Assembly (NCBI RefSeq): GCF_021172045.1
Contig: NZ_CP087164.1
Span: forward strand, 3,782,001 to 3,846,000
Reading direction: 5' to 3'
Source: Capillimicrobium parvum
GTDB lineage: Bacteria; Actinomycetota; Thermoleophilia; Solirubrobacterales; Solirubrobacteraceae
Length of the DNA: 64,000 bases
In this document: positions 24,331 through 50,318 of the stretch, piece by piece
Numbering within the stretch: position 1 is the stretch's first letter
Layout: each line of letters starts with the position of its first letter
Notes under the pieces: generated by a model
What the model was told of the DNA's origin: nothing
The model's database searches: none
What the model saw: the letters and a program-made list of their open reading frames with translations, nothing else
Translations under genes and position numbers: made by a program

Positions 24331-24423
24331 GCCGCGCCACCGCGTTCGTCCAGGACGCCCGCCGGGCGTATGATCGGCGTTGCGCACGGCCCGCCGAGCC
24401 GGCGCGCGAAAGGATCTCGCTCG

Positions 24424-25204: not shown

Positions 25205-26563
25205 TCAGGCGGGTGTGGCCGGCAGTTGCGAGAGGTCGACGCGGCCGCGGTTCTCCTTGTACGGCGCCAAGGCGACCATGGCCCGGATCTCGCGCTGCGC
25301 CGTTCCCGGGTTGCCCCAGACCACCGCCACCTCGTTGCCGATCTCGCTGTGGTCGACGTCGATCACGGCGAGCGACAGCATCTCCCGGAAGTACGCGCTG
25401 TAGCCGCGTGACGTCGAGACCCCCGCGGGAGCCCCGTCCGCGAGCACCTGGTCGGCGTACATGTATCCGCGCCGCTCGCGGGGCATGTCCATGAAGTCGG
25501 GAAGCGGATCGCCCTTGCGGAACAGCTCCCCCCACAGCTTCAGGACGTCATCGGCGTGCCAGACGAGGGTCCGGAGCACGCGGCGCGGATTCGCCACCTC
25601 CTCGGCCAGCGCCTCCCGGCCGATGAACTCGTGGTCGAACTTGATGCGGCCGGCCCAGTCGAACTCCACCGGGCTGCGGTAGTAGTCGCGCGGGTCGTCC
25701 GTGTCGAAGCTGCCCGCCACCTTGTAGAAGAGATCGAACGCGGGCGCCCCGTAGGCGTCGCTGAGCTGGACGTCGAGGTAGTCGCGAAAGTCGGCGGACC
25801 ACTCGTCGAAGATCGCGGGCAGGTAGTCGAGCGTGACGGTCGGGTACGCGGCCTCGAGGTGGTTGAGCATCGAGACCTTGGCGCCCATCCGGCGGATGCC
25901 GTACTCCTGGCCGGCCTCGAGGATGGCGTTCGAGATCTCGGCGAGGAACTCCTTCGGCGCCTGCAGCTCGAACCCGATCTCGCCGGTCATCCCCTGCCGC
26001 AGCGCGAGCACCTCGTGGCCGGCGATCGTCACGGGGGTCGAGCGCATGTAGCCGGCGTCACGGACGCTCTGGCCGGCCGCCCGCTCGAGCACGTAGATGG
26101 ACAGGGGGCCCTGGAGGTGGAGGTTCGTCCACTCGAGCGGCTCCGCGGAGACGTCGTAGCCGCCCTTGCGGAGCTGGTAGTTCGTCCAGTGGACGCACTG
26201 GCCGAACTGCGCGACCTCCTGCTCGCCGATGCGGCTCAGGATCCCCTCCCCGATGAGCTTGCCGTCAGGGTTGCAGTGGATGATGTGCTTCGACTGGCCG
26301 ATCGCGAAGGGGTCCATCGTGTTCACCGAGATGTCCGAGAACAGCCGGAAGACGTCCGGTCCCGTGAACCGCATGTCCGGCAGCCATGACCAGTCGCCGA
26401 GGTAGCACGTCTCCTTCCACGACAGGCTCTCGTCGATCCAGCTCGTGTACTGGGGAGCTCCCCACATGAGATCGAACTCCGCGTAGAGCGGCTTGCGGAG
26501 GAAGTCCACGGTCGTGGAGGGCTGCCCCACCTTCGGTTCCGGCGATGCGTTGCTGGACGTCAT
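25205..26563 (-). CDS. GcvT-fold O-demethylase, LigM/DesA-like (tetrahydrofolate-dependent)
   Basis: 452-residue member of the aminomethyltransferase (GcvT) fold. Its length, single-domain build and motifs (DISVNTMDPFAIGQSKHIIHCN, LQGPLSIYVLERAAG, GMTGEIGFELQAP) resemble the vanillate/3-O-methylgallate and syringate O-demethylases LigM and DesA of Sphingobium, which move an aryl methyl group to tetrahydrofolate. N-methyl transfer is an alternative within the fold. Last gene of the 14-kb operon, 44 nt after the decarboxylase-like gene. It implies that the operon's substrate, or an entry substrate, carries a methoxy or N-methyl group. Confidence 0.75.
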   Translation of the reverse strand: MTSSNASPEPKVGQPSTTVDFLRKPLYAEFDLMWGAPQYTSWIDESLSWKETCYLGDWSWLPDMRFTGPDVFRLFSDISVNTMDPFAIGQSKHIIHCNPDGKLIGEGILSRIGEQEVAQFGQCVHWTNYQLRKGGYDVSAEPLEWTNLHLQGPLSIYVLERAAGQSVRDAGYMRSTPVTIAGHEVLALRQGMTGEIGFELQAPKEFLAEISNAILEAGQEYGIRRMGAKVSMLNHLEAAYPTVTLDYLPAIFDEWSADFRDYLDVQLSDAYGAPAFDLFYKVAGSFDTDDPRDYYRSPVEFDWAGRIKFDHEFIGREALAEEVANPRRVLRTLVWHADDVLKLWGELFRKGDPLPDFMDMPRERRGYMYADQVLADGAPAGVSTSRGYSAYFREMLSLAVIDVDHSEIGNEVAVVWGNPGTAQREIRAMVALAPYKENRGRVDLSQLPATPA

Positions 26564-26607
26564 GTCGAACTCCGTTCGGTTGATCGGGACGGACGCGGGG
26601 CGCGGCC

Positions 26608-27597
26608 TCAGACGGAGAAGCTCTCGAGGGTGGCGGCGACGAAGAGCTCCTCGGGGTCGCGCCTTGTCTGCGCGAGGCCCTGCTCGGCGGAATAGCGAAG
26701 GAACGTCGCCAGGGTCTCGCGGTTGGGTCGCAGGCCGTACGCCCAGGGGTCGGGGCCCATGAGCTCCTCGGTCTCCTCGGCGTGCGCGACGAGCCACGGC
26801 AGCGCGTACTTCAACGCCGTGACCTCGTGCAGGTTCTCGCGGGTCTTGGCGAGCGCCGCGTCGAAGGCCTTCAACAGGCTCTGCGCGACCCACGCGGACC
26901 GCTCGTACAGCTCGCGCCGGATGACGACCACGTGCATGATCGGGAAGATCGCGGTCTGGCGGAAGTACTCGCGCTCGACGGCCGGCCAGTCCGCGAACAG
27001 CCGCACGATCCGGCCGTTGCCCAGCACGCTCGGGGCCCTCGGGCTGTAGATCGCGTCGATCTCGCCGGCGTCGAGCAGCGCCGAGAGCGAGCGGCCCTCG
27101 GGAGCGCGCTCGACGCGAATGTCGCCGGGCAGGTCGATCGCCATCTTCTCGATGCGCCCGGGCTGTTCGAGTCCTCCGGTGACGTAGGTGACGCTCTCGA
27201 CGGGGAGGCCGTGGTGCTCGGCGAGGATGCCGCGGATCCAGACGTTGGCGGTGAGCTGGTACTCGGCGACGCCGACCCGACCGCCGGCCAGCTCGCCGGG
27301 GTGGCGGATCCCACTGCGCGCGTTGACGTAGATGCCGGAGTGGCGGAACATCCGCGACGGGAAGACCGGGATCGCCACGAACGGCGGCTCGTCGGCCTCG
27401 AGCGACAGCACGTAGGAGGACAGCGACATCTCGGCGGCGTCGAACTCGCGGTGGCGCATCATGCGGAAGAACGTCTCCTCCGGCGCCATCGGCAGGTAGG
27501 TCAGGTCGATGCCCTCGGGCACGACGGTGCCGTCGGCGAGCGCGCGGGTGCGGTCGTAGTCCCAGCAGGCCAGGCTGAACGGGCGCCGGCCGGTCAT
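26608..27597 (-). CDS. 4,5-dihydroxyphthalate decarboxylase-like protein (periplasmic-binding-protein fold)
   Basis: 329 residues with the type-2 periplasmic-binding fold but no signal peptide or lipobox, which separates it from transport proteins. The LACWDYDRTRALADG start, the RMMRHREFDAAEMSLSSYV segment and FPSRMFRHSGIYVN match the family annotated as 4,5-dihydroxyphthalate decarboxylase (Pht5-like). Expected to remove a carboxyl group from a dihydroxylated aromatic ring. ATG at 27597 overlaps the NicX-like gene by ATGA. In this operon it could decarboxylate a pyridine carboxylate before ring cleavage. The family is poorly characterised, so the reaction is inference. Confidence 0.7.
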   Translation of the reverse strand: MTGRRPFSLACWDYDRTRALADGTVVPEGIDLTYLPMAPEETFFRMMRHREFDAAEMSLSSYVLSLEADEPPFVAIPVFPSRMFRHSGIYVNARSGIRHPGELAGGRVGVAEYQLTANVWIRGILAEHHGLPVESVTYVTGGLEQPGRIEKMAIDLPGDIRVERAPEGRSLSALLDAGEIDAIYSPRAPSVLGNGRIVRLFADWPAVEREYFRQTAIFPIMHVVVIRRELYERSAWVAQSLLKAFDAALAKTRENLHEVTALKYALPWLVAHAEETEELMGPDPWAYGLRPNRETLATFLRYSAEQGLAQTRRDPEELFVAATLESFSV

Positions 27598-28664
27598 CGC
27601 GAGCGCACCGAACGGGTGGCGCGCACCGTGGACACCTGCAGCTCGGGAATCGTGAACCGGCCGTCGACGATGACGGGCTCGTCGTCGAGGTAGACCGAGC
27701 AGCCGCGCATGGGGATGTCGATGTGGGCGGGCGTGTCGTTGCTGCCGCCGAGCTCCTGGTTGGGGCCGAGCGCGAACATGACGTTGCCGTAGAACGCGCG
27801 CGCCTCCTGACCGAAGCCCTCGGTGCGGCTGGCGCGGTGCGACCAGCGGGCGTTCTCGTTGACGCCCCAGCCGATGTGCGAGCAGGCGTAGCCGCGCGGG
27901 TCGTCGAACTCGTCGAGGTAGTCCTGCAGGAGCTCGGCGTCGTGGCCGCCCCGGATGTCCGTGACGACGCCGTGCTCGATGGTGAGCTCGATCGGCTCGG
28001 AGACGTACGTGTTGAACGGGGCGACGAGGATGTCGCCGCGATCGACGACGAGCCGGCCGTCGACGCCGTCGTCGGCGCCCCCGGTGAACGCGAACCCGCC
28101 GGGCCAGGAGTCCCAGCGCCCACGCGTCTCGGCGAACCCCCACTCGGGGATGACCGGGTAGGCCCCGAGCTGGTACGTGACGTCGCTGCCCGCCGGGTTG
28201 GTCAGCCGCAGCGTCTTGGCCTTCGCCAGCAGCTCAGCGCTGATCTGGACCCGCTCCTTCTGCTCCCTGGTGGGGAACATCCGCGCGAGCAGGTCGACCG
28301 GCTCGATGACCATCAGCATCCGGGTGCCGCTGGCCTGGATGGCGATCTGCTCCTTCGACCACAGCAGGAACACGAGGTCGATGACGAGATCGGCCTCCTG
28401 GAGCGCCCGCAGCGCCGCCGGGTTCCGAGCCAACGGGTTGACCCCCACCGACGTGATCCCGCTCGAGCCCAGGGTCGTGCCGATCTCGCTGAGGCGCAGG
28501 TTGTACGCGTAGGCACCCAGATCGCGAGCGGCCGTCAGGAACGCGTCGGCGTAGTCGAGGCGGTCGTCGCCCTGCGAGAGCACCACCACCGTCTCGCCCT
28601 CCGTCGCGGCGCACAGCTCGAGCTCGCGCTTGCACAGCGCGGCAAAGTCAGCCCAACGGATCAT
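27594..28664 (-). CDS. 2,5-dihydroxypyridine 5,6-dioxygenase-like enzyme (NicX family), copy A
   Basis: 356 residues of the NicX branch of the M29 aminopeptidase-like fold. NicX opens 2,5-dihydroxypyridine to N-formylmaleamate with mononuclear iron. The metal ligands correspond to His263 (SHIGWG) and His314-x-Asp316 (HIDIP), at nearly the spacing of P. putida NicX as I recall it. Other shared stretches are WSKEQ, MFPTxEQ, AGSDVTY, GRWDSWPGGF and ARAFYGNVMFALGPNQELGG. Overlaps both neighbours by ATGA. The alternative reading is a true leucyl aminopeptidase, since database names overlap, but the residues and the NicD/NicF-like neighbours favour ring cleavage. Confidence 0.72.
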   Translation of the reverse strand: MIRWADFAALCKRELELCAATEGETVVVLSQGDDRLDYADAFLTAARDLGAYAYNLRLSEIGTTLGSSGITSVGVNPLARNPAALRALQEADLVIDLVFLLWSKEQIAIQASGTRMLMVIEPVDLLARMFPTREQKERVQISAELLAKAKTLRLTNPAGSDVTYQLGAYPVIPEWGFAETRGRWDSWPGGFAFTGGADDGVDGRLVVDRGDILVAPFNTYVSEPIELTIEHGVVTDIRGGHDAELLQDYLDEFDDPRGYACSHIGWGVNENARWSHRASRTEGFGQEARAFYGNVMFALGPNQELGGSNDTPAHIDIPMRGCSVYLDDEPVIVDGRFTIPELQVSTVRATRSVRSR

Positions 28665-29956
28665 CGAATCTCCTTGCTTGCTCGTGGGTCCCACTCGACC
28701 AGCAGCGACTTCATTGCCACCACCGTCATCACCGCGTCGTAGACGAACTCCTGGTCGGGGACGACGCGGATGTCCGGGATGCGCTCGAACAGCACGTTGA
28801 GCCCGACCCGCGCCTCCAATCGGGCCAGGGGCGCGCCCATGCACATGTGCCGGCCGCGCCCGAACGACAGGTGCTTGTCGGCGTCGGGCCGCGCGATGTC
28901 GAAGCGATCGGGCTCCTCGAACAGCGCCTCGTCGCGGCCCCCCGAGATGTAGACCAGCCACACCAGCGAACCCTTCGGGATGACGGTGCCGGCGATCTGC
29001 ACGTCGCGGGTGGTGATCCGGAACAGGCCGGGCGACGTACCCCGCATCCGCAGGCCCTCCTCGACCGCGTTGGCCATCAGCGTGGGGTCGCGCCTGACGG
29101 CGGCGAACTGCTCGGGGTGGGCGTCGAAGAACCGCACCATGAACCCCATCAGGTTCGCCGTCGTGTCGTTGCCGGCGGCGACGAGCTCCATGATGTGGGT
29201 GCTGATGCGCTCGGGGCTGATCGCCGGGCGCCCCTCGTCGTCGGTGACCTGGACCAGCGCGGAGGTGAGGTCGTCGCGCGGTTCGGCGATGCGATCCTCC
29301 ACGAACTTCGTGTAGTACTCGTAGGCCTCAGCCATGTGCGTCCACCGGCGCCGCCGCTCCTCCTCGGCCATGGGCTTCGCCGTCGTCGCGTCCGGATCGT
29401 CGGCATCGACCGGGCCCATGAGGCTGAACATGTCCTCGGTCCACTGGCGGAACCGCGGCGCGTCCTGCGGCGGCATGCCCAGCAGCCGGATGATCACCTC
29501 CAGCGACAGCGGATAGCAGTAGTCCCGCATCAGGTCGCAGGCGCCGCGACCGACGACGCCGTCGAGCAGTCCGTGCGCGATCTCCTCGATGTCCGCCTCG
29601 AGCGCGGCGATCCGTCCGCGCGTGAACGCCTTGTTGGCGTTCTTGCGCACGACCGTGTGCTTCGGCGGGTCGATCGCGATGAACGCGTGCTCCATGAGGT
29701 TGCGCGGCACACGGTGCGCCAGATCGGCCGGCGGCGGCACCACGCCGGTCGCCCGCGACGAGAACGTCTCGAAGTCGTTGACCGCGGTCACGAGATCCTC
29801 GTGACGGGTGATCACCCACAGGCTCATGGGCTCGTAGAAGAACACCGGCGCTTCGCGCCGCGCCCGCGCAAGCATCGGGTACGGATCCGCGAGGAACTCC
29901 GGGCTCAGCGGATCGAACCCGTCCAGCGTCGGGAACGCGCTGATGTCAGCTGACAC
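28661..29956 (-). CDS. cytochrome P450, operon copy 1
   Basis: 431-residue P450 with all standard motifs: I-helix AAGNDTT, ExxR in EEGLRMR, and heme loop FGRGRHMCMG with Cys372. The start is GTG 29956, after GAGGAGCAGGACC. It resembles the P450 at 35493-36767 over its whole length (QWTEDMFSLM, ITTRDVxxxG, GAPLARLEA), so one is probably a duplicate of the other with a different regiospecificity. Sits between an SDR and the NicX-like gene, the same P450-SDR pairing as the other copy. Likely hydroxylates the ring or demethylates the substrate before NicX-like cleavage. Confidence 0.92.
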   Translation of the reverse strand: MSADISAFPTLDGFDPLSPEFLADPYPMLARARREAPVFFYEPMSLWVITRHEDLVTAVNDFETFSSRATGVVPPPADLAHRVPRNLMEHAFIAIDPPKHTVVRKNANKAFTRGRIAALEADIEEIAHGLLDGVVGRGACDLMRDYCYPLSLEVIIRLLGMPPQDAPRFRQWTEDMFSLMGPVDADDPDATTAKPMAEEERRRRWTHMAEAYEYYTKFVEDRIAEPRDDLTSALVQVTDDEGRPAISPERISTHIMELVAAGNDTTANLMGFMVRFFDAHPEQFAAVRRDPTLMANAVEEGLRMRGTSPGLFRITTRDVQIAGTVIPKGSLVWLVYISGGRDEALFEEPDRFDIARPDADKHLSFGRGRHMCMGAPLARLEARVGLNVLFERIPDIRVVPDQEFVYDAVMTVVAMKSLLVEWDPRASKEIR

Positions 29957-29991
29957 GGTCCTGCTCCTCTCTGGCCTACGAACGCCGCCGG

Positions 29992-30750
29992 TCATGTCGC
30001 GCCCATCGTGGACCCGGCGCTGACGTTGACGATCTCCCCCGTGATCATCCGCGCCCCCGGACCGGCCAGGAACCGCACGCACGCCGCGATGTCCTCCGGC
30101 GTGATCGCCCCCTCGAGCAACTGGGTGCCGATGACCTCGTCGTACCACTCGGCCGGCATCACCGCGCGCCCCGCGTCGGTCGGCACCAGGCCCGGGGAGA
30201 CGGCGTTGCACGCCACCCCGAACGGCCCCAGCTCCCGGGCCATCGACCGCGTCAACCCGACGATCGCCGCCTTGGCCGCCACGTAGTGGATGAGATCCGG
30301 CATGCCGAAGCTCACCGTCGCCGACGTGAAGTTCACGATCCGGCCGGACCTCGCCCGGCGCATCGGCTCCGACACCGCCCGCGACATCACGAACACCGAG
30401 CGCGCGTTGACGGCCATCACCGCGTCGTACTCGTCCACCGGGATCTCCCAGAACGGCCGGCGCGCCAGGTCGATCCATCGCCCGGCGTTGTTGACCAGGA
30501 CGTCCACTCGGCCCCGCTCGCCGATGATGTCGTCGACCACGCGGGCGGCCGCGAGCTGGTCGGTCGCGTCCACCGAACGGGATGCGAACGTCCCACCGGC
30601 CGCCTCGACCGCCGCCGCCGACTCCGCGCAATCGCTCAGATCCGCGCCGTAGACCACCGCGCCCGCCTTGCCGAGCGCCACCGCGATGGCGCGCCCCAGC
30701 CCCCGGGCGGCCCCGGTCACGATCGCCACCTGCCCATCCAGCTCCCTCAC
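29992..30750 (-). CDS. short-chain dehydrogenase/reductase, operon copy 1
   Basis: 252 residues, classical SDR: cofactor motif TGAARGLG at 12-19, NNAG at 87-90, catalytic Ser143 and Tyr156-x3-Lys160. Starts with GTG, overlapping the ABC ATPase stop in a GTGA. Acidic Asp at the end of strand 2 (GADLSD) suggests NAD. Next to a P450, the natural job is oxidation of an alcohol produced by hydroxylation. The other operon SDR (36817-37599) has the same relation to the second P450. Confidence 0.9.
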   Translation of the reverse strand: MRELDGQVAIVTGAARGLGRAIAVALGKAGAVVYGADLSDCAESAAAVEAAGGTFASRSVDATDQLAAARVVDDIIGERGRVDVLVNNAGRWIDLARRPFWEIPVDEYDAVMAVNARSVFVMSRAVSEPMRRARSGRIVNFTSATVSFGMPDLIHYVAAKAAIVGLTRSMARELGPFGVACNAVSPGLVPTDAGRAVMPAEWYDEVIGTQLLEGAITPEDIAACVRFLAGPGARMITGEIVNVSAGSTMGAT

Positions 30751-32261
30751 ACCAGCTCCCCAGTCGTGACTGCTTGCAGAAGCCCATGCTCGGACAGCTC
30801 GTCGCGCCCGAGCTCGCCCATGACGTCGCCCTGGTAGAAGACCAGGACGCGGTCGCAGAGCGCCGCCATCTCCTGCAGGTCGCTCGACGTGTACAGCACG
30901 ACCGTCCCGCCCTCCGCGATCGAGCGGATCACGCCCTGCATCTCGGCCTTGGCCCCGACGTCGACGCCGCGGGTCGGATCGTCGAGCAGCATGAGCGACG
31001 GCCCGGTCTCCAGCCATTTGGCGAACAGGACCTTCTGCTGGTTGCCGCCGGAGAGCGCGCCGACGGGCGCCCACGGGGAGGCCATGGCGACGCGGAGCCG
31101 GTCGCGCCACGTCTCGGCGCGCTGCGCCATCGGCCCGTTCCGTATGACGAGCCCATCGCGGCGCAGCGCGCAGCTGCTCACGAGCGAGATGTTCTCGGCG
31201 ATCGGCTTCTCGAGGTGCAGGCCGGTCTGCTTGCGATCGGCGGGCACGAAGGCGACGCCGGCGCGGATGGCCTCCGCGATGCCGCGCGGGCACGGCCCTC
31301 CGCCCGGCAGGACCACCCGCCCTCCCATGGGACGCTCCACCCCGAAGAGCATGCGCAGGATCGCCTGCACACCCGAGCCCTCGAGCCCGGCCAGGCCCAC
31401 GATCTCGCCCGGATGCGCGTCCAGCGTCACGCCGCGGACCTTGCGCCGGATGGAGACGTCGGCCAGGCGCAGCGCCGCCTCATCGCGCCGGTCGATCGTC
31501 CGCTCGACCTGGGGTGGGGAGGCGCCGGACCGGACCGCGGCCGCCGCCTCGCCGAGCATGCCGTCCACGGCCGCCGCGACGGTGAGCTCGCCGACGGGCC
31601 GGCGTGCGACGACCACGCGGCCCCCGCGCAGGATCGTCACGGCATCGGCGACCTCGAAGACGTCCTCGAGGAAGTGCGAGACGAAGACGATGCCCACCCC
31701 GTGCTCGCGCAGGCTCCGGATGACCCCGAGCAGGCGCGCCGTCTCGTCCGCACTGAGCGCGGAGGTCGGCTCGTCGAGGATCAGGATCCGCGGGTCGCCG
31801 AGCAGCGCGCGGGCGATCTCGACGAGCTGCTGCTCGCCGAGGGCAAGCTCACCGACGGGCCGCTCGAGGTCGAACGCAAGGCCGAGCTGGCGGACGACGC
31901 GCTGTGCACGCTCGCGCATGCCGCGCCGGCTGATCGCGACGTGCCCGCTGACGGGCTCGCGCATGAGGAAGAGGTTGTGCAGTCCGTCGAGCGCGGGGAA
32001 CAGGTTGAGCTCCTGCGACACGAGCGCCACGCCTCGGCGCGCCGCGTCCTCGACGCTCTTGAAGGCCGTCGGCGCGCCATCGAGCCGGAGCGTGCCCGAC
32101 GTCGGCCGCTCGCCCCCCGCCAGGATCTTCACCAGGGTCGACTTGCCGGCCCCGTTGGCGCCGAGGAGGGCATGGACCTCGCCGGGGTCGACCTCGAAGG
32201 TCGCCCCGGCGAGGGCCTGCACGCCGCCGTATCGCTTCGTTATGTCCCTGGCCGAGTACAC
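30747..32261 (-). CDS. ABC transporter ATP-binding protein, RbsA/MglA type (operon importer)
   Basis: 504 residues, two nucleotide-binding domains in one chain as in sugar-type importers. Domain 1 has Walker A GANGAGKST (34-42), signature LALGEQQ and Walker B ILILDEPTSAL. Domain 2 has a degenerate Walker A (GLEGSGVQ), LSGGNQQK and LMLLDDPTRGVDVG, where the usual Walker B glutamate is aspartate. Starts at GTG. Followed downstream by SDR and preceded by its binding protein and permease, so a full importer lies in the catabolic operon; it probably imports the pathway's aromatic substrate rather than a sugar. Confidence 0.92.
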   Translation of the reverse strand: MYSARDITKRYGGVQALAGATFEVDPGEVHALLGANGAGKSTLVKILAGGERPTSGTLRLDGAPTAFKSVEDAARRGVALVSQELNLFPALDGLHNLFLMREPVSGHVAISRRGMRERAQRVVRQLGLAFDLERPVGELALGEQQLVEIARALLGDPRILILDEPTSALSADETARLLGVIRSLREHGVGIVFVSHFLEDVFEVADAVTILRGGRVVVARRPVGELTVAAAVDGMLGEAAAAVRSGASPPQVERTIDRRDEAALRLADVSIRRKVRGVTLDAHPGEIVGLAGLEGSGVQAILRMLFGVERPMGGRVVLPGGGPCPRGIAEAIRAGVAFVPADRKQTGLHLEKPIAENISLVSSCALRRDGLVIRNGPMAQRAETWRDRLRVAMASPWAPVGALSGGNQQKVLFAKWLETGPSLMLLDDPTRGVDVGAKAEMQGVIRSIAEGGTVVLYTSSDLQEMAALCDRVLVFYQGDVMGELGRDELSEHGLLQAVTTGELV

Positions 32262-32279
32262 AGCGGCGTCAGCTCCCCA

Positions 32280-33458
32280 TCAGTTCGGGAAGGAGTCGTC
32301 CAGCGGATGGGTGTTGCCCTGGAGGTCGCCGAGGATCTTCTCCGCCATCGGCTGGAACAGCGCCGACTGCGCGTCGGGCGAACCGGCCGCCTGCAGGTAC
32401 TCGTCGATGTTCTGCTCGGTGACCGGATAGGTCCCCGTGTCGATCCAGCCTTCGGGCGCGGCTCCCTCGCCCCGTGCGGCCTTGGCCAGGAGGTCGATCG
32501 TGACGAAGCCGGCGATCCACGGCGCCGTGCTCACACCGCCCGTGACCTTGCCGCTCTTGATGGCCTGCAGCCCGGCCTCGGTCGGGTCGAGCAGGGCCAC
32601 GGCGACGTCACCGGCCGAGCCCTTGTTCTTCAGGGTCACGATGCTCCCGGTGTCGGAGTCGCACGGGCCGAAGGCGATCACCGCGTCCGGGTTGTCCTGC
32701 ACGACCGACGACCACGTCGACAGGTTCTTCGACGCGTCGGCCGGATCGGTCGTGAAGTTGACGATCTTCACGTTCGGCAGGCGCTGCTTCAGGACCTTCT
32801 CCGCGCCGGCGACGCGCTCGTCGAGGATCGGCGTGCCCTTCGCGCACTCGGACACCAGCGCCGTGCCCTTCGTGCTCGCGTCGAGCTTCGCCTTGTCGAT
32901 CGCCAGAGTGATCGCTTCCTCGCCGCTCTTGGCGTCGCTGGCCCCCACGAACGTCCTGACCGGCGACGTCTGGCCGGGCGCGGCGGCCTGCTTGCACGAG
33001 AACGCGATCACGTTGTTGTCGGGAACCTCCGTCTCCATCCGCTTGAGCACCTTGCTCCACGCGGGCAGGACGCACGGGTTCACCGCGAACCCCTGGGGTC
33101 CGTCGACGAGCAGGTTCTCCGCCATCTGGACCTCCTTGACGCCGGTGGGCGCCTCGGCGGCCTGCAGCGCCAGCTTGATCGCCCCGTCATCCGCGACCGC
33201 CTTCTCGGCGCCGTGCTGTGCCGCGATGAAGTACGGGATCTGGAAGCTCATCACCATGGCCAGATTGACGTCCTTCTTCGCCGCCTCGGTCGTCGCCGCC
33301 GACGTGCCCGCCGCCGACGTGCTCGCCGCCGACGTCCCGGATGTGGCGGTCGAGTCGCCGCCCGAGCTCCCGCACCCGGCGATCAGGACGCCCGCCGTCA
33401 GCGCAGCGGCCAGTGGTCCGGCGATCCGGCGGACCGCGATGCTCCCCATGCTCCTCAC
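32280..33458 (-). CDS. ABC transporter solute-binding lipoprotein (operon importer)
   Basis: 392-residue binding protein with a lipoprotein signal peptide ending LIAGC (lipobox) followed by a Ser/Thr/Ala-rich linker, then a periplasmic-binding fold of the sugar-binding (Peripla_BP_4) class. GTG at 33458 or ATG at 33449 could be the start; both have AGGAG/AGAGG-like sequences upstream. It belongs to a different subgroup from the four related proteins at 43-64 kb, lacking their AFPDALSAHPDA and GNGGSRLG signatures. 18 nt separate it from the ATPase gene. Binds an unknown substrate outside the membrane. Confidence 0.88.
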   Translation of the reverse strand: MRSMGSIAVRRIAGPLAAALTAGVLIAGCGSSGGDSTATSGTSAASTSAAGTSAATTEAAKKDVNLAMVMSFQIPYFIAAQHGAEKAVADDGAIKLALQAAEAPTGVKEVQMAENLLVDGPQGFAVNPCVLPAWSKVLKRMETEVPDNNVIAFSCKQAAAPGQTSPVRTFVGASDAKSGEEAITLAIDKAKLDASTKGTALVSECAKGTPILDERVAGAEKVLKQRLPNVKIVNFTTDPADASKNLSTWSSVVQDNPDAVIAFGPCDSDTGSIVTLKNKGSAGDVAVALLDPTEAGLQAIKSGKVTGGVSTAPWIAGFVTIDLLAKAARGEGAAPEGWIDTGTYPVTEQNIDEYLQAAGSPDAQSALFQPMAEKILGDLQGNTHPLDDSFPN

Positions 33459-33533
33459 CTCGTTACCTCTGTTGGTTGTTGTGCGAACCCACCGGCCGAC
33501 CCATGGTCTGGACGCGGCGGATCCCTACGTCCG

Positions 33534-34544
33534 TCAGGTGCGCGCCGCCTGGCGGCGCAGCAGGCCGGCGATCCCCACCGCCACGAGGATCACGATGCCG
33601 GTGACGACGTCGCCCCAGAGCGGGTCGACCTTGAAGAAGACGAGCCCGCTGGTGATCGCGGCCACGATGAGCGCGCCGATCAGAGCCCCCGGGACCGATC
33701 CCGTGCCGCCGCTCAGCGACGTGCCGCCGATGATGGCCGCGGCGATGACGTTGAGCTCCAGTCCGCGGCCGATCGACGGATCGCCCGCCTCGAAGTACGC
33801 CAGGCTCAGCACGCCGGACAGAGCCGCGAGCAGCCCGGTCAGCATCAGCGCGTAGAGGCGCACCCGCCCGGACGGGATGCCGGAGAACCGCGCGGCCTCG
33901 CGATTGGAGCCGACCGCGCGGACCATGACGCCGAACCGGGTCTTCTGCATGACGAAGGTCAGCACGGCGCCGATGACGACCGCGAACCACCCGATCACCG
34001 GGATCCCCAGCCAGTCCCCGCCGAACGTCGTGAAGAACGACGAGTCGACCGGGAGCGTGGGCGTTGCCTCCCCGCCCGAGATGACGCTGACGAGGCCCCG
34101 GTAGAGGGAGAACGTCCCCAGCGTGACGATGATGACCGGGACCCTGAACGCGTTGGCCGCGACCCCGTTGAACGCCCCCATGGCCACCCCCGCCGCGAGA
34201 GCGATCACCGCGGCGAGGTACGGGTCGACGGAGCTGTCGCCCATCAGCTTCGCGGCGAGGTAGAAGCAGACCCCGTAGATCCCGCCGACCGAGAGGTCGA
34301 TCTCCGTCATCGCCAGCAGGAACACGATCCCGAACGCGATGATGGCGACGACCGACGCCGTGCGGACGTTCGACATGATCACGGTGTCGGAGAAGAACCG
34401 CGAGTGCGTCACCCCGATCACGAGGACGATCGCCACGAGGCCCAGCAGCGGGCCCAGCTCCTGCAGGCGCACCGACCGGCGCCAGCGCCCATCCTGCGGC
34501 GCGCTCGGCGCCGCCACCTTCGCTGCGTCCGCGGTCGGGCTCAC
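33534..34544 (-). CDS. ABC transporter permease, RbsC type (operon importer)
   Basis: 336 residues with about 9-10 membrane segments and the BPD_transp_2 signatures AMTEIDLSVGGIYG and AVGSNREAARFSGI, as in ribose/xylose permeases. Start GTG at 34544 overlaps the NicF-like gene's stop (GTGA). Works as a dimer with the double-domain ATPase at 30747-32261. 75 nt separate it from the binding protein gene, the largest gap within the operon; I see no promoter there. Confidence 0.9.
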   Translation of the reverse strand: MSPTADAAKVAAPSAPQDGRWRRSVRLQELGPLLGLVAIVLVIGVTHSRFFSDTVIMSNVRTASVVAIIAFGIVFLLAMTEIDLSVGGIYGVCFYLAAKLMGDSSVDPYLAAVIALAAGVAMGAFNGVAANAFRVPVIIVTLGTFSLYRGLVSVISGGEATPTLPVDSSFFTTFGGDWLGIPVIGWFAVVIGAVLTFVMQKTRFGVMVRAVGSNREAARFSGIPSGRVRLYALMLTGLLAALSGVLSLAYFEAGDPSIGRGLELNVIAAAIIGGTSLSGGTGSVPGALIGALIVAAITSGLVFFKVDPLWGDVVTGIVILVAVGIAGLLRRQAART

Positions 34545-35242
34545 GACTCCCCCTGCGATCGAAGTGGCGCGATGGTCGCCGGCGCACCGGGAGCCTCCAC
34601 CGCCTCCAGGTACGCGAGCGCCCGCTCGAGCGAGACGACGTCGCCGTACTTGACCTGGATGTCGTAGAGGCTGGCGAGGTGGGGCAGCTCGCGACGGTCC
34701 CCCACCGCCTCGCGAACGACGATGGGGCGGAAGCCGTGCGCGCTCGCGTCGACCGCGCACGCGCGCACGCAGCCGCTCGTCGTGAATCCGGCGATGAGCA
34801 GCGTGTCGACCCCCCGCCCGGTCAGCTCGGCCGCAAGGGTCGTCCCGAAGAACGGTGACGCGTGCTTCTTGATGATGAGCAGCTCGTCCGGCCGGCGCTC
34901 CAGGCGGGGGTCGAGCTCGACCTGCTCCGATCCCTCGACGAGCTGGAGATTGGCGGGGATCTTGTGGCGCCACACGCCGGTGTCCGCCAGCCCGGCGTCG
35001 TAGCGCACCGTCGCGAAGATGACGGGCAGCGCCCGCCGGCGGGCGACCGCGAGAAGCTCTCGGACGGCGGCGATCTGCGGTTCCGCATCGGCGCCGAGCG
35101 GGAAGCGCGGATCGACGAAACCGCGCTGCATGTCCACGACGATGATCGCCGGGCGCCGGCCGAAGCCCATCTCCGCGCCCATCCCGCGCTCGCGCAGCTC
35201 CGCCAGCATCGCCTCGTACTCCGTGGTCGCGCTCCAGCTCAT
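34541..35242 (-). CDS. isochorismatase-fold amidohydrolase, NicF-like (maleamate/N-carbamoyl amidase), copy A
   Basis: 233-residue cysteine hydrolase. Catalytic Asp37 (VVDMQRGF), Lys125/126 (IIKKHASPFFGT) and Cys158 (TTSGCVRA) form the triad of N-carbamoylsarcosine amidase and maleamate amidohydrolase (NicF). The segment ASPFFGT and the HLASLYDIQVKYGD end are typical of this amidase subgroup, not of true isochorismatases. With NicX- and NicD-like genes in the same operon, hydrolysis of maleamate (or a substituted form) to maleate and ammonia is the best guess. A second copy is divergent at 39867-40541. Confidence 0.8.
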   Translation of the reverse strand: MSWSATTEYEAMLAELRERGMGAEMGFGRRPAIIVVDMQRGFVDPRFPLGADAEPQIAAVRELLAVARRRALPVIFATVRYDAGLADTGVWRHKIPANLQLVEGSEQVELDPRLERRPDELLIIKKHASPFFGTTLAAELTGRGVDTLLIAGFTTSGCVRACAVDASAHGFRPIVVREAVGDRRELPHLASLYDIQVKYGDVVSLERALAYLEAVEAPGAPATIAPLRSQGES

Positions 35243-35285
35243 GACCGGTCCCTCCGGGCCCGCTCGCACGGCGGCGCGGGCACCG

Positions 35286-35477
35286 TCAGACGCCGTGGGA
35301 GCTGAGCGGCGTGCCGCCGACCCCCCAGCGGCTCGACGGCACCGGCTCCAGCACCACCGAGACGGACTCGACGGGCACGGGCAGGTGCGTGAGCACCGCC
35401 GCCGTGATGTCGCGGATCAGCGCCTCCTCCGTGGCGTCGTCGGACTTCGCCGCGTAGCGCACGTGGACGAACGGCAT
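35286..35477 (-). CDS. 4-oxalocrotonate tautomerase-like small enzyme
   Basis: 63-residue protein of the tautomerase superfamily: after removal of Met the N-terminus is Pro1, the catalytic base, and the C-terminal WGVGGTPLS matches the FGIGG turn of 4-OT. The two substrate-binding arginines are not conserved: the Arg11 position aligns with Lys10 and the Arg39 position with Ser. So it probably acts on something other than 2-hydroxymuconate, for example an enol form of the ring-cleavage product. Size is normal for the family. Placed 43 nt after the NicF-like start side and 15 nt from the P450. Confidence 0.78.
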   Translation of the reverse strand: MPFVHVRYAAKSDDATEEALIRDITAAVLTHLPVPVESVSVVLEPVPSSRWGVGGTPLSSHGV

Positions 35478-35492
35478 GGGAGACCTCCTGCG

Positions 35493-36767
35493 TCAGCGGG
35501 ACCATTCGATCCTCAGGCTCTTGAGCGTCTGGACGGTCATGGTCGGGACGTACTCGAGGCGCTGGTCGGGGACCGTCAGGCCGGGAAGATGGCCGTAGAC
35601 CTCGCGCATCGCGACCTGGGCCTCGAGGCGGGCGAGCGGCGCGCCGAGGCAGAAGTGGCGGCCCTTGCCGAACGCGAGGTGATCGGTGGCGTTGGGCCGG
35701 TGGACGTCGAACCGCAGCGGGTCGTCGAACTTCGCGGGATCCGTGTTCGCCCCGGTCGTGTTGACGACGATGATCGACCCCCTCGGGATCTTGACGCCGC
35801 TCAGCTCCACGTCGCGCGTCGTGATCCGCAGGAGGTGCGGTCCGGTGGAGCGCCGCCGCAGCCCCTCCTCGACGACCCCCTCCCACAGCGACCCGTCGCG
35901 CTTGACCTCCTCGAGCTGGTCGGGATCGTGGTCGAGGAACTGGACGAGGTTGCCCATGAGGTTCGCGGTCGTGTCGTTGCCGGCCGCGACCAGCTCGATC
36001 AGATGGGTCTTGATGGTGTCGTCGTCCATGGTCCACTCGCCCTCGGGCGTGCGGCTGTTGGACAGGACGGTGAGGAAGTCCTCGCGCGGCGCGGCCCGGC
36101 GGTCGGCGACGACCTCGCCGAAGTAGTCCCACGCATCGGCGAGCCGCGTGTAGCGCTCCGTCGCCTCCGCCTCGCTCATCGGCCGCGTCGGGGCGTCCGG
36201 CTCGTCCGCCGCGCCGGCCGACATCAGGCTGAACATGTCCTCGGTCCATTGGCGCAGGCGCGGCATGTCCGACGGCGGCAGGCCGAGGACCTGCACGATC
36301 ACCCGCAGCGACAGCGGGTAGGCGAACTCCTGCATGAAGTCGCAGTGGCCGCGGTCCGCGAACGCGTCGATGAGCTCGGTGGCGAACTCCCGGATCTTCG
36401 GCTCGAGCGCGGCGACGATGGGCCGCGTGAACCCGCGCTGGGACGCCTTGCGATCGCGAGTGTGCTGCGGCGGGTCGATGTTGATGTAGTTGACGTTCAG
36501 CGGGCGCTCGGGCAGGCGGTCGCGCAGCGCCGCGGGCACGGGTACCGCGCGCAGCGCACGCGACGAGAACGTCTTGGAGTCGGTGAAGACCCACTCGACG
36601 TCGTCGTAGCGGGTCACGAACCAACAGCCCAGCGGCTCGTACCAGAACACGGGCGAGTCCCTGTGCGCCCGGCCCAGCATCGGGTCCGGGTCCCGGCTGA
36701 AGTCCTGGGAGAACGGATCGAACCCATCGAGCTCCGGCCGCACCTGTGGGGAGGTCGTATCGGTCAT
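35493..36767 (-). CDS. cytochrome P450, operon copy 2
   Basis: 424-residue P450 with I-helix AAGNDTT, ExxR in EEGLRRR and heme loop FGKGRHFCLG (Cys373). Closely related to 28661-29956; both have the QWTEDMFSLM and GAPLARLEA stretches. Lies between an SDR gene upstream and the tautomerase gene downstream in the operon. Ferredoxin and reductase are not in the operon; the only ferredoxin in the window is the Rieske type at 55848. Probably supplies a hydroxyl group needed for dihydroxypyridine-type ring opening. Confidence 0.92.
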   Translation of the reverse strand: MTDTTSPQVRPELDGFDPFSQDFSRDPDPMLGRAHRDSPVFWYEPLGCWFVTRYDDVEWVFTDSKTFSSRALRAVPVPAALRDRLPERPLNVNYINIDPPQHTRDRKASQRGFTRPIVAALEPKIREFATELIDAFADRGHCDFMQEFAYPLSLRVIVQVLGLPPSDMPRLRQWTEDMFSLMSAGAADEPDAPTRPMSEAEATERYTRLADAWDYFGEVVADRRAAPREDFLTVLSNSRTPEGEWTMDDDTIKTHLIELVAAGNDTTANLMGNLVQFLDHDPDQLEEVKRDGSLWEGVVEEGLRRRSTGPHLLRITTRDVELSGVKIPRGSIIVVNTTGANTDPAKFDDPLRFDVHRPNATDHLAFGKGRHFCLGAPLARLEAQVAMREVYGHLPGLTVPDQRLEYVPTMTVQTLKSLRIEWSR

Positions 36768-36816
36768 CGTGGGTCTCGTCTCCTGGTCGGTGTCGATCGC
36801 TCGCCCGGCATCGCGG

Positions 36817-37599
36817 TCAGTGGAAGCTGTCGCCGCCGTCGACGTTCACGAGTTGGCCCGTCATGAACCCGTTGGCCGGGGCGACGAGGAACGCGACGCA
36901 CTCCGCGATGTCCTCCGGCCGGCCCCGGCGCCGGATGAGCTGGCTGGGCACCACGAAGCCGAAGAGCTCGTCCGCCCGGGGTCCCAGGTCACGCAGACCC
37001 TCCGTGTCGATGAGGCCGGGCGCCACGGCGTTGACCGTGATGCCGTGCTCCGCGAGCTCGCGGGCGGAGCTCCGGGTGAGGCCGATCGCCGCCGCCTTCG
37101 ACGCGACGTACGCGGGGCCGCCCACGCCGTTGAGGAAGACCGCCGAGGCGAAGTTGACGATCCGGCCGTAGCGCTGGTCGCGCATCGCCGGGAACACCGC
37201 CTTGGAGCACAGGAACGCGCTCTCGGTGTTGACGCGCATGATCCGGCGCCAGTCCTCGAGGGTCAGATCGACGAACGGCACGTGGGGATAGATCCCGGCG
37301 TTGTTGACGAGCGCGTCGATGCGGCCGAGCTCACCGCGCACCGCCTGCGCGGCCGCCGTCACCGCCGCCTCGTCGGTGACGTCCAGCGCGAACGCCTGCG
37401 CGTCCGCGCCGGCGCTGCGCAGCTCGGCCGCCGCCTGCTCGGCGCCGTCGCCGTCGAGGTCCCACACCACCACCCGCATGCCGTCGGCGGCGAGGCGCCG
37501 CGCGACCGCCCGCCCGATCCCGCGGGCGGCTCCGGTGACGATGCCGACCTGGCCCTGGAACGGCCGGGCGTAGGCGTCGTGTGCGGTCGTCGGCTGCAT
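36817..37599 (-). CDS. short-chain dehydrogenase/reductase, operon copy 2
   Basis: 260 residues, classical SDR: TGAARGIG at 22-29, NNAG at 99-102, Ser152 and Tyr164-x3-Lys168. Strand 2 ends VVVWDLDG, the Asp favouring NAD. Six bases separate its start from the NicD-like stop, so the two are co-translated. The C-terminal NVDGGDSFH is the usual FabG-like end. Likely dehydrogenates a hydroxylated intermediate made by the adjacent P450. Confidence 0.9.
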   Translation of the reverse strand: MQPTTAHDAYARPFQGQVGIVTGAARGIGRAVARRLAADGMRVVVWDLDGDGAEQAAAELRSAGADAQAFALDVTDEAAVTAAAQAVRGELGRIDALVNNAGIYPHVPFVDLTLEDWRRIMRVNTESAFLCSKAVFPAMRDQRYGRIVNFASAVFLNGVGGPAYVASKAAAIGLTRSSARELAEHGITVNAVAPGLIDTEGLRDLGPRADELFGFVVPSQLIRRRGRPEDIAECVAFLVAPANGFMTGQLVNVDGGDSFH

Positions 37600-37605
37600 C
37601 GGCTC

Positions 37606-38478
37606 CTAGCCCTCGGCTCCGTCGACGCTCGCGAAGCGCTCGGAGGTGAACTGCCGCAGGGCGTCCAGGAAGCCCTCGAGGTTGGCGTGCGGGACGAGGT
37701 GCCCCGCGCCGGCCACGTCGACCACCGGGATGTCGGGCCGCAGCGCGCCCAGCTCCCGCGCGTCCTCCTCGGTGACGACGGCGCTCTCGGCGCCGCGGAC
37801 GAGCACCGCCGGCGCCGTGATCTGCGCGTAGATCTCGTGGAAGTCCTCGTCGTGGAAGCCGCGGTGCGTCGCCTCGATGGCGCCGAGGTCGCAGCTGCGC
37901 AGCCACCGGATGCGGTCGATCACCGCGTCGTCGCTGACGAGGTTCGGCTCGAGCCGGCGGAACTCCGCGATCGAGGGCTCGGGGGCTTGGGCGATCTCGA
38001 AGAAGCCCTTGTACATGCCGAGGGGGTGGGGGTACGGCGCACGACCGGGTCCGCTCAGGGGCGGATCGACGAGGACGAGCCCGCCGGCGGCGCCCGGAGC
38101 CGCGAGGTCGAACGCCGCCGCGATGCGGGCCCCCATCGAGTGGCCGACGAGGATCGGCGCCTGCAGTCGCAGCCGCTCGACGACGCCCACGAGGTCCGCG
38201 GCGTAGTCGTCCAGCGAGAACCCGGACGCCGGATGATCGGTCAGGCCGCGGCCGCGCACGTCGACGACGAACGCGCGGACGCCGTCGGGCAGGGCGCGGC
38301 CCACGAAGTCCCAGGTGGCCGCTGCCGCCGTCATGCCCGGGATCAGCACGACGTCGATGCCGGCGTCGCCGTCGCCGTACTCGATGACGTGCTGCCAGAT
38401 CCCGTTGGCGAGCACGAAGTGCGTTGCCTGCTCGGCACCGAACGGCGGCCGGGAGGGGACGTCGAACGTCGCGGTCAT
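37606..38478 (-). CDS. NicD-like alpha/beta hydrolase (N-formylmaleamate deformylase candidate)
   Basis: 290 residues with the alpha/beta-hydrolase triad Ser114 (GHSMGAR), Asp138 (LVDPP) and His260 (GAGHLVP). DVRGRGLTD, LVLVDPPLSGPGRAPYP and the Ser-to-Asp distance of 24 residues agree with P. putida NicD, the Ser-dependent N-formylmaleamate deformylase, as I remember it. It is not of the LLM-paired subfamily, which has PTGH around its histidine. ATG at 38478 overlaps the upstream NicX-like gene in ATGA, so dioxygenase and deformylase are made together, matching the reaction order. Confidence 0.8.
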   Translation of the reverse strand: MTATFDVPSRPPFGAEQATHFVLANGIWQHVIEYGDGDAGIDVVLIPGMTAAAATWDFVGRALPDGVRAFVVDVRGRGLTDHPASGFSLDDYAADLVGVVERLRLQAPILVGHSMGARIAAAFDLAAPGAAGGLVLVDPPLSGPGRAPYPHPLGMYKGFFEIAQAPEPSIAEFRRLEPNLVSDDAVIDRIRWLRSCDLGAIEATHRGFHDEDFHEIYAQITAPAVLVRGAESAVVTEEDARELGALRPDIPVVDVAGAGHLVPHANLEGFLDALRQFTSERFASVDGAEG

Positions 38479-39554
38479 CGGTCCACCGCCGGCTCCGGGC
38501 CCCGCCCGGCGCGGGCGCCCTCGACCTTCAGCTCGGGCACGACGAACTCGCCGTCGACGAGCACCGGCACGTCGTCGAGGTGGATCGTGCAGTTGCGCAT
38601 CGGGATGTCGATGTGCACCGGCGTGTCGTTCGTACCGCCGAGCTCCTGGTTCGGGCCCAACGCGAACATGACGTTGCCGTAGAAGGCGCGCGCCTCCTGG
38701 CCGTAGCCGGAGACGCTGTTGGCCTTGTGGCACCACCGGGCGTTCTCGTTGCAGCCCCAGCCGATGTGCGAGACCGCGTAGCCACGGTCGTCCTGGAAGC
38801 CGACGATGTAGTCGCGCAGGAGGTCGGCGTCGAGACCGCCCTGGAGGTCGACGACGCGCCCGGCGCGGATCTCGAACTCGATCGGCTCCTGCACGTAGCG
38901 CCCGAACGGCGCGACGATGATGTCGCCGCGATCGACGACGACCCGGCCGTCGACGCCGTCGTCGTTGCCACCGGTCAGGACGAACCCGGCGGGCCAGTGG
39001 TCCCACCGCCCGGGCACGTCCGTGTAGCCGTAGACGCCCATGACCGGGTACTGATCGAGGCGGTAGGTCACGTCGGATCCCGCCGCGTTCGTCATCCGCA
39101 GCGTCCTGGCCTTCTCGAGCATGCGCTCGCTGAGCTCGACCCGCCGGCGCTGGTCCTCCGTCGGGAACATGCTCGTGAGCGACGTGATCGGCTCGATGCA
39201 CATGAGCATCCGTGCGCCGGCCTTGAGGATCTCGAGCTGCTCCTTGGACCAGAGCAGGAAGATCAGGTCGATGACGAGATCCGCGTCCTTGAGGGCGCGC
39301 ATCGCCGAGTCGTTGCCCGTGAGCGGGTTGATCCCGACGGTCCACACGCCGCTGCCGCTGAGCGCCGACGACGTGTCGCCGAGCCGGATGTTGTACGCGG
39401 TCGCGCCGAGGCGCCGCGCCGCGGCGACGAACGCGTCGGCGTAGTCGAGGCGATCCTCGGCCTGTGAGAGGACCACCACCGTCTCGCCCGCCGCGACCTT
39501 GCAGAGCTCGAGCTCGCGCTGGCACATGTCCGAGAACTCGGCCCACCTGATCAT
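38475..39554 (-). CDS. 2,5-dihydroxypyridine 5,6-dioxygenase-like enzyme (NicX family), copy B
   Basis: 359 residues, first gene of the 14-kb operon. Metal ligands His263 (SHIGWG) and His314-x-Asp316 (HIDIP) sit at the same numbers as in copy A, and the two proteins align with almost no gaps. ATG at 39554 has GGAGG at a good distance; an in-frame ATG at 39587 is less likely. Coupled to the NicD-like deformylase gene. Two ring-cleavage copies in one operon suggest either two substrates or a two-step degradation of related rings. Lead enzyme of the proposed pathway. Confidence 0.73.
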   Translation of the reverse strand: MIRWAEFSDMCQRELELCKVAAGETVVVLSQAEDRLDYADAFVAAARRLGATAYNIRLGDTSSALSGSGVWTVGINPLTGNDSAMRALKDADLVIDLIFLLWSKEQLEILKAGARMLMCIEPITSLTSMFPTEDQRRRVELSERMLEKARTLRMTNAAGSDVTYRLDQYPVMGVYGYTDVPGRWDHWPAGFVLTGGNDDGVDGRVVVDRGDIIVAPFGRYVQEPIEFEIRAGRVVDLQGGLDADLLRDYIVGFQDDRGYAVSHIGWGCNENARWCHKANSVSGYGQEARAFYGNVMFALGPNQELGGTNDTPVHIDIPMRNCTIHLDDVPVLVDGEFVVPELKVEGARAGRGPEPAVDR

Positions 39555-39684
39555 GCGAGACCTCCTCTCGTCCGGCCGGCGTCGCACCGCTCCCGGGCAG
39601 CGGCTCGCGTTCGTCCTGTCGTCATGGGGCGACCTTAGGTGCGCCCTGACGACGTGTCAGTGATCCTTGTCCGTGATCGCGATC

Positions 39685-39700
39685 GGTGACCGAAGTCACA
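39685..39700. promoter_or_regulatory. CRP-like site 1
   Basis: GGTGA-N6-TCACA matches the CRP-type consensus TGTGA-N6-TCACA at 9 of 10 positions. It is centred at 39692.5, between the divergent genes. The Crp/Fnr protein at 24424-25137 has the matching recognition residues. Confidence 0.6.
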
Positions 39701-39710
39701 GCCTCGACGG

Positions 39711-39726
39711 TGTGACCTGGGTCACC
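39711..39726. promoter_or_regulatory. CRP-like site 2
   Basis: TGTGA-N6-TCACC matches the CRP-type consensus at 9 of 10 positions. It is centred 26 bp from site 1, about two and a half helical turns, so dimers would lie on roughly opposite faces. Confidence 0.6.
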
Positions 39727-39866
39727 GATCCGGATCACTGACAGGTCCTGGGGGTCCCCGTACGGTGCCGTGATGCATCGAGCGCGCACGTGACCGCCCG
39801 AGGGCGTGTCCCGGCCGGCGCGAGCCGTCCGTGCCCACCCCCGACGTTCATGAAGGAGACCCAACC

Positions 39867-40541
39867 GTGAGCCAGCACCTGCTCGACGCCGAGGCCGAGT
39901 TCGAGCGCCTGTGGCAGGTCTACCAGCAGCAGGGCATGGTCAAGCGAGCCGGGTTGGGCGGGCGTCCGGCGGTCCTGTCGGTCGATCTCGTGCGCGGGTT
40001 CACCGACCCCTCCGCGCCGATGGGCCTGCACGCGTTCGGGGACGTCGTCGCCCCGTCGCGGACCGTCCTGGACGCTGCGCGCCGCGCGGGAGCACCCGTG
40101 GTCCTCGTCGGGTCCGGCTACGACGCCGAGTTCCGCGAAGCCGGAAGCTGGGAGCGGAAGGTCACCCACGCCGGGCTGGTGCACGGCAGCGAGTGGGTCG
40201 AGTTCGACGAGGGCCTCGGCCAGATCCCCAGCGACCACGTCGTCGTCAAGCGCTACGCGTCGGGCTTCTTCGGCACGGATCTCGTCAGCCGGCTCGTCAG
40301 CCAGGGGGTCGACACCGTGCTGGTCACCGGCGCGGCCACCAGCGGGTGCGTTCGCGCGACGGCGGTCGATGCCCTGCAGCACGGCTTTCGCGTCGCCGTC
40401 GTGCAGGACGCCGTCGCGGACCGCGAACGTCTCCCCCATCTCGCGTCGCTGTTCGACCTCGGCACGAAGTACGCGGACCTGGTCACCGTCGAGGAGGCGG
40501 TCGCCCATCTCTCGGCGGTCGGGGCGGCCGCCCCGCACTAA
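39867..40541 (+). CDS. isochorismatase-fold amidohydrolase, NicF-like, copy B
   Basis: 224 residues from a GTG start at 39867 chosen for its AAGGAGA ribosome binding site; an upstream GTG at 39831 has none. Triad Asp40 (LSVDLVRGF), Lys128 (VVVKRYASGFFGT) and Cys161 (ATSGCVRA). Related to copy A at 34541-35242 and also ends HLASLFDLGTKYADLV. Transcribed divergently from the NicX-like operon out of the same control region. Probably maleamate or N-carbamoyl amide hydrolysis. Ends four bases beyond the edge of a decayed MOSC fragment on the other strand. Confidence 0.8.
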   Translation: MSQHLLDAEAEFERLWQVYQQQGMVKRAGLGGRPAVLSVDLVRGFTDPSAPMGLHAFGDVVAPSRTVLDAARRAGAPVVLVGSGYDAEFREAGSWERKVTHAGLVHGSEWVEFDEGLGQIPSDHVVVKRYASGFFGTDLVSRLVSQGVDTVLVTGAATSGCVRATAVDALQHGFRVAVVQDAVADRERLPHLASLFDLGTKYADLVTVEEAVAHLSAVGAAAPH

Positions 40542-50274: not shown

Positions 50275-50278
50275 ACGC

Positions 50279-50296: not shown

Positions 50297-50318
50297 GGAC
50301 TACTCACGGAGAGGATCG

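What the first reader, a model, noticed from the sequence alone, without database searches (positions are those of the whole stretch)
39655..39743. Nested palindrome with two CRP-like sites controls the 14-kb operon
Perfect 12-bp and 11-bp inverted repeats with different centres enclose GGTGA-N6-TCACA and TGTGA-N6-TCACC, each 9/10 to the CRP consensus and 26 bp apart. The Crp/Fnr protein at 24424-25137 lies at the far end of the same operon and has Arg-Glu-x3-Arg in its recognition helix, the residues CRP uses for TGTGA. The 26-bp spacing would put two dimers on opposite faces, and the outer repeat adds two GTGATC half-sites, so a loop or a multi-protein complex is possible.
Basis: partly seen in the sequence, partly recalled or inferred. 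Interest (0 to 1): 0.72.

Follow-up and report, generated by a model that had tools for sequence, protein, structure and literature searches.

The report
CRP-type divergent promoter of pyridine-catabolism genes
The repeat is a real, nearly symmetric two-way promoter with two CRP-type protein-binding sites between genes that probably break down pyridine-ring compounds; it is a fairly ordinary bacterial switch, made lopsided by a 13-base duplication.

Summary
The repeats are real and exact: 12-bp arms 39655-39666/39732-39743, 11-bp arms 39681-39691/39720-39730, and two CRP-like sites (9/10 each) 26 bp apart. The two 'centres' have a simple cause: one 76-bp palindrome (39668-39743) whose left end is displaced by a 13-bp tandem duplication (39655-39667/39668-39680). 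Dropping one unit makes the element 87% symmetric. The outer TGTCAG/CTGACA are best read as two divergent -35 boxes: TGACA-N17-TANNNT occurs three times in 98 kb, twice here and once in a second copy of the element 39 kb away. That copy is the promoter remnant of a decayed operon duplicate. The element separates a leftward nicX-nicD-like (2,5-dihydroxypyridine pathway) operon from a rightward amidase gene. The Crp/Fnr gene is not in this operon: it lies on the opposite strand, convergent with its far end. It is still the best binder candidate: only CRP-type consensuses stand out among those tested, strict sites are at chance level genome-wide, and a 43%-identical homologue has 9/10 sites in its own cluster. 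Binding is untested, and conservation in orthologous operons could not be shown. Verdict: new member of a known kind.

The parts
39668..39743 (.). 76-bp imperfect palindrome (38-bp arms), the core two-way operator-promoter
   Evidence: inverted repeat at 82%; 87% symmetric if the 13-bp unit 39668-39680 is removed and 39655-39667 kept
39655..39680 (.). 13-bp tandem duplication TGTCAGTGATCCT|TGTCCGTGATCGC, which causes the two different palindrome centres
   Evidence: 10/13 identical; the same tandem unit is present in the second copy of the element
39685..39700 (.). CRP-like site 1, GGTGACCGAAGTCACA
   Evidence: 9/10 to TGTGA-N6-TCACA
39711..39726 (.). CRP-like site 2, TGTGACCTGGGTCACC
   Evidence: 9/10 to TGTGA-N6-TCACA
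39655..39660 (-). -35 box CTGACA of the leftward promoter
   Evidence: TGACA-N17-TANNNT found only three times in 98 kb, all in the two copies of the element
39632..39637 (-). -10 box TAAGGT of the leftward promoter; start inferred near 39625
   Evidence: conserved as TAGGGT in copy 2
39738..39743 (+). -35 box CTGACA of the rightward promoter
39761..39766 (+). -10 box TACGGT of the rightward promoter; start inferred near 39773
38475..39554 (-). nicX-like 2,5-dihydroxypyridine 5,6-dioxygenase, first gene of the leftward operon
   Evidence: E 2.3e-87 to PDB 7cn3; frame
37606..38478 (-). alpha/beta hydrolase, nicD-like by position and fold, second gene
25205..37599 (-). rest of the leftward operon: SDR, P450, isochorismatase-family hydrolase, ABC transporter, SDR, P450, second nicX-like gene, unassigned 329-aa protein, DesA/LigM-like demethylase
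   Evidence: co-transcription is inferred from shared strand and close spacing
39867..40541 (+). isochorismatase-family amidohydrolase (N-carbamoylsarcosine amidohydrolase-like, possible maleamate amidase), the only gene of the rightward unit
   Evidence: frame
24370..25137 (+). Crp/Fnr regulator, candidate binder; not in the operon (convergent, opposite strand)
   Evidence: Pfam HTH_Crp_2 and cNMP_binding; helix GSVREVVSR

Best explanation
39632-39766 is a back-to-back promoter pair. Two sigma-70-type -35 boxes (CTGACA) form the outer ends of a palindrome, and between them sit two inverted CRP-type operators (GTGAC-N4-GTCAC) 26 bp apart. A dimeric Crp/Fnr-type regulator, most likely the one encoded at 24370-25137 and responding to something other than cAMP, binds the operators and switches the leftward nicX-nicD-type pyridine-ring operon and the rightward amidase gene together. 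The original element was a symmetric 76-bp palindrome; a 13-bp tandem duplication in the left arm moved the leftward -35 outward, so that site 1 lies near -67 of the leftward start and site 2 near -54 of the rightward start (starts inferred from the -10 boxes). Positions upstream of -35 suggest activation, but repression is not excluded. Shown: sequence anatomy, promoter-like spacing, second copy, gene content. Inferred: which protein binds, sign of regulation, ligand.
For: Exact anatomy. TGACA-N17-TANNNT occurs only three times in 98 kb, all in the two copies. The CRP consensus is the only one tested that none of 1500 random sequences reaches; S. coelicolor Crp GTG(N)6GNCAC (PMC10033298) is matched 7/7 (1.2% of random sequences reach that), while IclR, FNR and CooA consensuses are at or near chance. 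Between copies, proposed motif bases are kept 55/61 against 32/54 elsewhere, p 1.1e-4. Exact GTGAC-N4-GTCAC is not above chance genome-wide (10 found; about 12 expected at 2.1 per Mb), and three of the ten lie in the two copies within one catabolic island, which suits a local regulator. Crp/Fnr helix GSVREVVSR fits TGTGA recognition (residue roles from own knowledge). A homologue in G032, 43% identical with the same helix, has GGGAC-AATT-GTCAC in its 90-bp divergent gap and GCGAC-ATAA-GTCAC upstream of an ABC-transporter operon.
Against: No binding data. The Crp/Fnr gene is 14 kb away, convergent, and has no such site in its own promoter region. None of 80 nicX loci in other species has the exact motif or this regulator, and three congeners lack the element. 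Homologues in R. opacus and two other actinobacteria have at best 7-8/10 sites. One-mismatch sites are expected about three times per 40 kb, so the G032 sites are only suggestive. Motif positions for the footprint test were chosen after seeing the sequence. The inferred -67 and -54 positions are not the classical CRP positions (-41.5, -61.5).
Confidence: 0.55

Rival explanations
1. Same divergent promoter-operator, but the binder is an IclR-family regulator of the catabolic island (8598-9311, 62626-63384 or 69725-70450), using the palindrome plus the extra direct half-sites as a multi-box operator.
For: Three IclR genes lie in the island. IclR operators of aromatic pathways can carry an external direct half-site (PcaU, PobR, HmgR), and TsdR of Rhodococcus jostii uses GTGTGRYTSSMRTCAYAC, with the same TGA-N6-TCA core (PMC8222616).
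Against: TsdR and both general IclR consensuses match the element no better than random sequence (8.5-33% of Markov sequences do as well). No palindrome of this sequence is seen upstream of the three IclR genes.
Confidence: 0.18
2. Same element, but bound by a global CRP-type paralogue (such as the protein at G000:C1:5678365-5678889) as carbon-catabolite control.
For: That paralogue also has Arg-Glu-x3-Arg (GSSRESASR). TGTGA-N6-TCACA with up to one mismatch occurs at 17 places against 5 for the reversed-pattern control.
Against: Most of the other relaxed sites examined lie in predicted coding sequence, and exact GTGAC-N4-GTCAC is at chance level genome-wide.
Confidence: 0.15
3. The element is a small non-autonomous mobile element (MITE-like inverted repeat) that happens to lie between divergent genes.
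For: Two copies in the genome with inverted-repeat anatomy.
Against: Homology between the copies is not bounded by the palindrome: it runs on through the leftward -10 box, and a nicD-like fragment lies beyond it beside copy 2, as expected from operon duplication. Only two copies by DNA search of the genome, none in three congeners.
Confidence: 0.03

Closest known systems
CRP-type operators (E. coli CRP TGTGA-N6-TCACA; Streptomyces coelicolor Crp GTG(N)6GNCAC)
   Same: 9/10 match at two sites; 7/7 match to the Streptomyces form; upstream of -35 boxes; candidate protein with Arg-Glu-x3-Arg helix.
   Different: The candidate regulator appears to lack the cAMP-contact residues; two sites in opposite helical phase within one symmetric divergent promoter; site positions are not the classical -41.5 or -61.5.
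IclR-family operators of aromatic catabolism (PcaU, PobR, HmgR, TsdR)
   Same: Palindrome plus direct half-site repeats; aromatic catabolism; TsdR shares the TGA-N6-TCA core.
   Different: The published consensus sequences fit this element no better than random sequence.
nic lower pathway for nicotinate (nicX, nicD, nicF) of Pseudomonas putida
   Same: nicX-like dioxygenase strongly similar to the solved 2,5-dihydroxypyridine 5,6-dioxygenase; alpha/beta hydrolase and isochorismatase-family amidase beside it.
   Different: Embedded in a long operon with P450s, SDRs, an ABC transporter and a demethylase-like protein; substrate unknown.

Membership tests
CRP-type operator | TGTGA-N6-TCACA palindrome | tested here: met
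   9/10 at both sites; 0 of 1500 random sequences as good
CRP-type operator | a regulator with Arg-Glu-x3-Arg in the recognition helix is encoded in the genome | tested here: met
   GSVREVVSR at 24370-25137; also GSSRESASR in a paralogue
CRP-type operator | site centre at a classical distance from the transcription start | tested here: inconclusive
   about -67 and -54 from starts inferred from the -10 boxes; starts are not mapped
CRP-type operator | site kept upstream of the orthologous operon | tested here: inconclusive
   exact motif absent from 80 more distant nicX loci; no close orthologous operon found; kept only in a paralogous remnant in the same genome
CRP-type operator | binding by the Crp/Fnr protein | not testable with these tools
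   needs EMSA or footprinting
cAMP-dependent CRP (regulator 24370-25137) | cAMP-contact Glu and Arg in the effector domain | tested here: not met
   in the alignment to mycobacterial Crp, GE becomes GL and PRT becomes AGA; residue roles from own knowledge
IclR-family operator | GKTYCRYW3-4RYGRAMC, TGRAACAN1-2TGTTYCA or TsdR-type consensus | tested here: not met
   matches no better than random; the N1 form of the group 2 consensus was tested
MITE | homology between copies ends at the terminal inverted repeats | tested here: not met
   homology extends past the palindrome on the left side

The most novel reading that the evidence does not exclude
A pathway-specific Crp/Fnr regulator that does not use cAMP works through two antiphase operators inside a symmetric two-way promoter; a 13-bp duplication, shared by a decayed second copy, put one promoter in a different helical phase and so set a fixed ratio between the ring-opening operon and the amidase gene.
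Probability: 0.2. Interest if true: 0.45.

Novelty: new member of a known kind. Interest (0 to 1): 0.3.

Why it matters
It names a concrete candidate switch, with base-level predictions, for a pyridine-type catabolic cluster in an actinobacterium of a group with little studied regulation (the closest nicX relatives are Solirubrobacterales). It also shows how an apparently complex nested palindrome can come from one symmetric promoter plus a short tandem duplication.

Tried and rejected
Calls with nicX translated in the wrong frame (window:38475-39555:-) and the amidase in the wrong frame were discarded and repeated with correct frames; the tally of relatives is not used. Pattern ATCGGTGAC-N4-GTCAC in 398 other genomes of the class gave 15 hits, none with the composite element. 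Plasmid search gave only distant DNA matches and one Crp/Fnr homologue, in two records of R. opacus PD630. Searches for papers on nicX regulation or on Crp/Fnr in pyridine catabolism found nothing directly relevant in the library held. MITE reading rejected; no terminator-like site in the region. Structure prediction was not run, since it would not discriminate between candidate binders.

Full report
Observation. The sequence at 39655-39743 is TGTCAGTGATCCTTGTCCGTGATCGCGATCGGTGACCGAAGTCACAGCCTCGACGGTGTGACCTGGGTCACCGATCCGGATCACTGACA. Both perfect repeats and both 9/10 CRP-like sites are there. An independent repeat search reports a 38-nt inverted repeat 39668-39705/39706-39743 at 82%. It is not chance: none of 1500 Markov-generated 89-mers reaches 9/10 on the CRP consensus, and paired GTGAC-N4-GTCAC within 60 bp did not arise in 60 Mb of Markov sequence.

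Why two centres. The left arm holds a 13-bp tandem duplication, TGTCAGTGATCCT|TGTCCGTGATCGC (10/13 identical). The whole 89 bp is only 56% symmetric; without the second unit it is 66/76 (87%) symmetric, without the first 82%. So this is one palindrome with an insertion, not two separate nested palindromes.

Promoters. Read outward, the arms carry CTGACA on each strand, followed after exactly 17 bp by TAAGGT (leftward, 39632-39637) and TACGGT (rightward, 39761-39766). TGACA-N17-TANNNT occurs only three times on both strands of 98 kb: these two, and once in the second copy of the element. A strict E. coli-type scan does not list them, since the -10 boxes match TATAAT only 3/6; TANNNT -10 boxes are usual in high-GC actinobacteria (own knowledge). 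Both flanking genes have good ribosome-binding sites (AGGAGG before ATG 39554; AAGGAG before GTG 39867).

Genes. Leftward: nicX-like 2,5-dihydroxypyridine dioxygenase (E 2.3e-87 to 7cn3), alpha/beta hydrolase, SDR, P450, a small ORF, isochorismatase-family hydrolase, ABC transporter with a sugar-type binding protein, SDR, P450, a second nicX-like gene, a 329-aa protein without family match, and a DesA/LigM-like demethylase, down to 25205. Rightward: one isochorismatase-family amidohydrolase. The Crp/Fnr gene 24370-25137 is on the + strand behind a Rieske oxygenase. It meets the operon tail to tail, so the 'same operon' claim fails.

Second copy. A DNA search of the own genome finds the element once more, 39 kb to the right (G000:C1:3860516-3860631). 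Its leftward promoter reads TTGACA-N17-TAGGGT. To its left lies an 83-bp stretch 78% identical to the 5' part of the nicD-like gene; to its right are 38 bp identical to the 3' end of ORF 73488-75635 (window numbering continued) and then a short ORF whose start looks like a glyoxalase-family gene (the latter by eye). This is best read as the promoter remnant of a decayed duplicate operon. Proposed motif bases are better kept between copies than the rest (55/61 against 32/54, p 1.1e-4), with the caveat that motif positions were chosen after looking. The homology does not stop at the palindrome edge, which speaks against a mobile element.

Who binds. CRP-type is the only consensus tested that no random sequence reached; the Streptomyces Crp form (7/7; 1.2% of random sequences) points the same way, while IclR, FNR and CooA consensuses are at or near chance. 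The local Crp/Fnr protein has Arg-Glu-x3-Arg and appears to lack the cAMP-contact residues in its alignment to mycobacterial Crp. Exact GTGAC-N4-GTCAC does not exceed chance genome-wide: 10 sites, three of them in the two copies, against about 12 expected at 2.1 per Mb. That suits a pathway-specific regulator. A homologue in genome G032 (43% identical, same helix) has 9/10 sites in its divergent gap to an FAD monooxygenase and upstream of an ABC-transporter operon in its own cluster. This is suggestive only, since about three such sites per 40 kb are expected by chance. Homologues in R. opacus and two other actinobacteria show at best 7-8/10. The CRP paralogue and the three IclR regulators remain possible.

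Limits. None of 80 nicX loci from other species carries the exact motif, none has this Crp/Fnr protein nearby, and three congeners lack the element. Binding, sign of regulation and ligand are inferred.

Verdict. A real divergent promoter-operator of CRP type, ordinary in kind, with a simple explanation for its asymmetry.

Noticed in passing
G000:C1:3860374-3860631 (beyond the right end of the window; L004 14374-14631): A second copy of the element beside an 83-bp nicD-like fragment and a 38-bp perfect repeat of the 3' end of a nearby ORF: a rearrangement scar left by a decayed operon duplicate.
   Followed up: partly
27594-28664: A second nicX-like dioxygenase gene (64% identical to the first) within the same operon; a further homologue lies elsewhere in the genome (L028).
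   Followed up: partly
50278-50297: Perfect 8+8 palindrome CTATGGAC-gggt-GTCCATAG just upstream of an HpaB-type hydroxylase gene (50319-51881): a candidate operator for another regulator.
   Followed up: no
66710-66730 (window numbering continued; L004 2710-2730): Palindrome ATCGGTATTG-t-CAAGACCGAT upstream of ORF 66790-68109.
   Followed up: no
50319-51881, 56168-57754, 58720-60285: Three HpaB-type flavin hydroxylases lie in the same island, together with several sugar-type ABC transporter genes and methionine-synthase-like proteins, suggesting a large heteroaromatic catabolic island.
   Followed up: no
8179-8466 and 78078-78359 (window numbering continued): Two related small genes (about 95 aa, 71% DNA identity) in the island; the second lies beside the decayed operon copy.
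   Followed up: no
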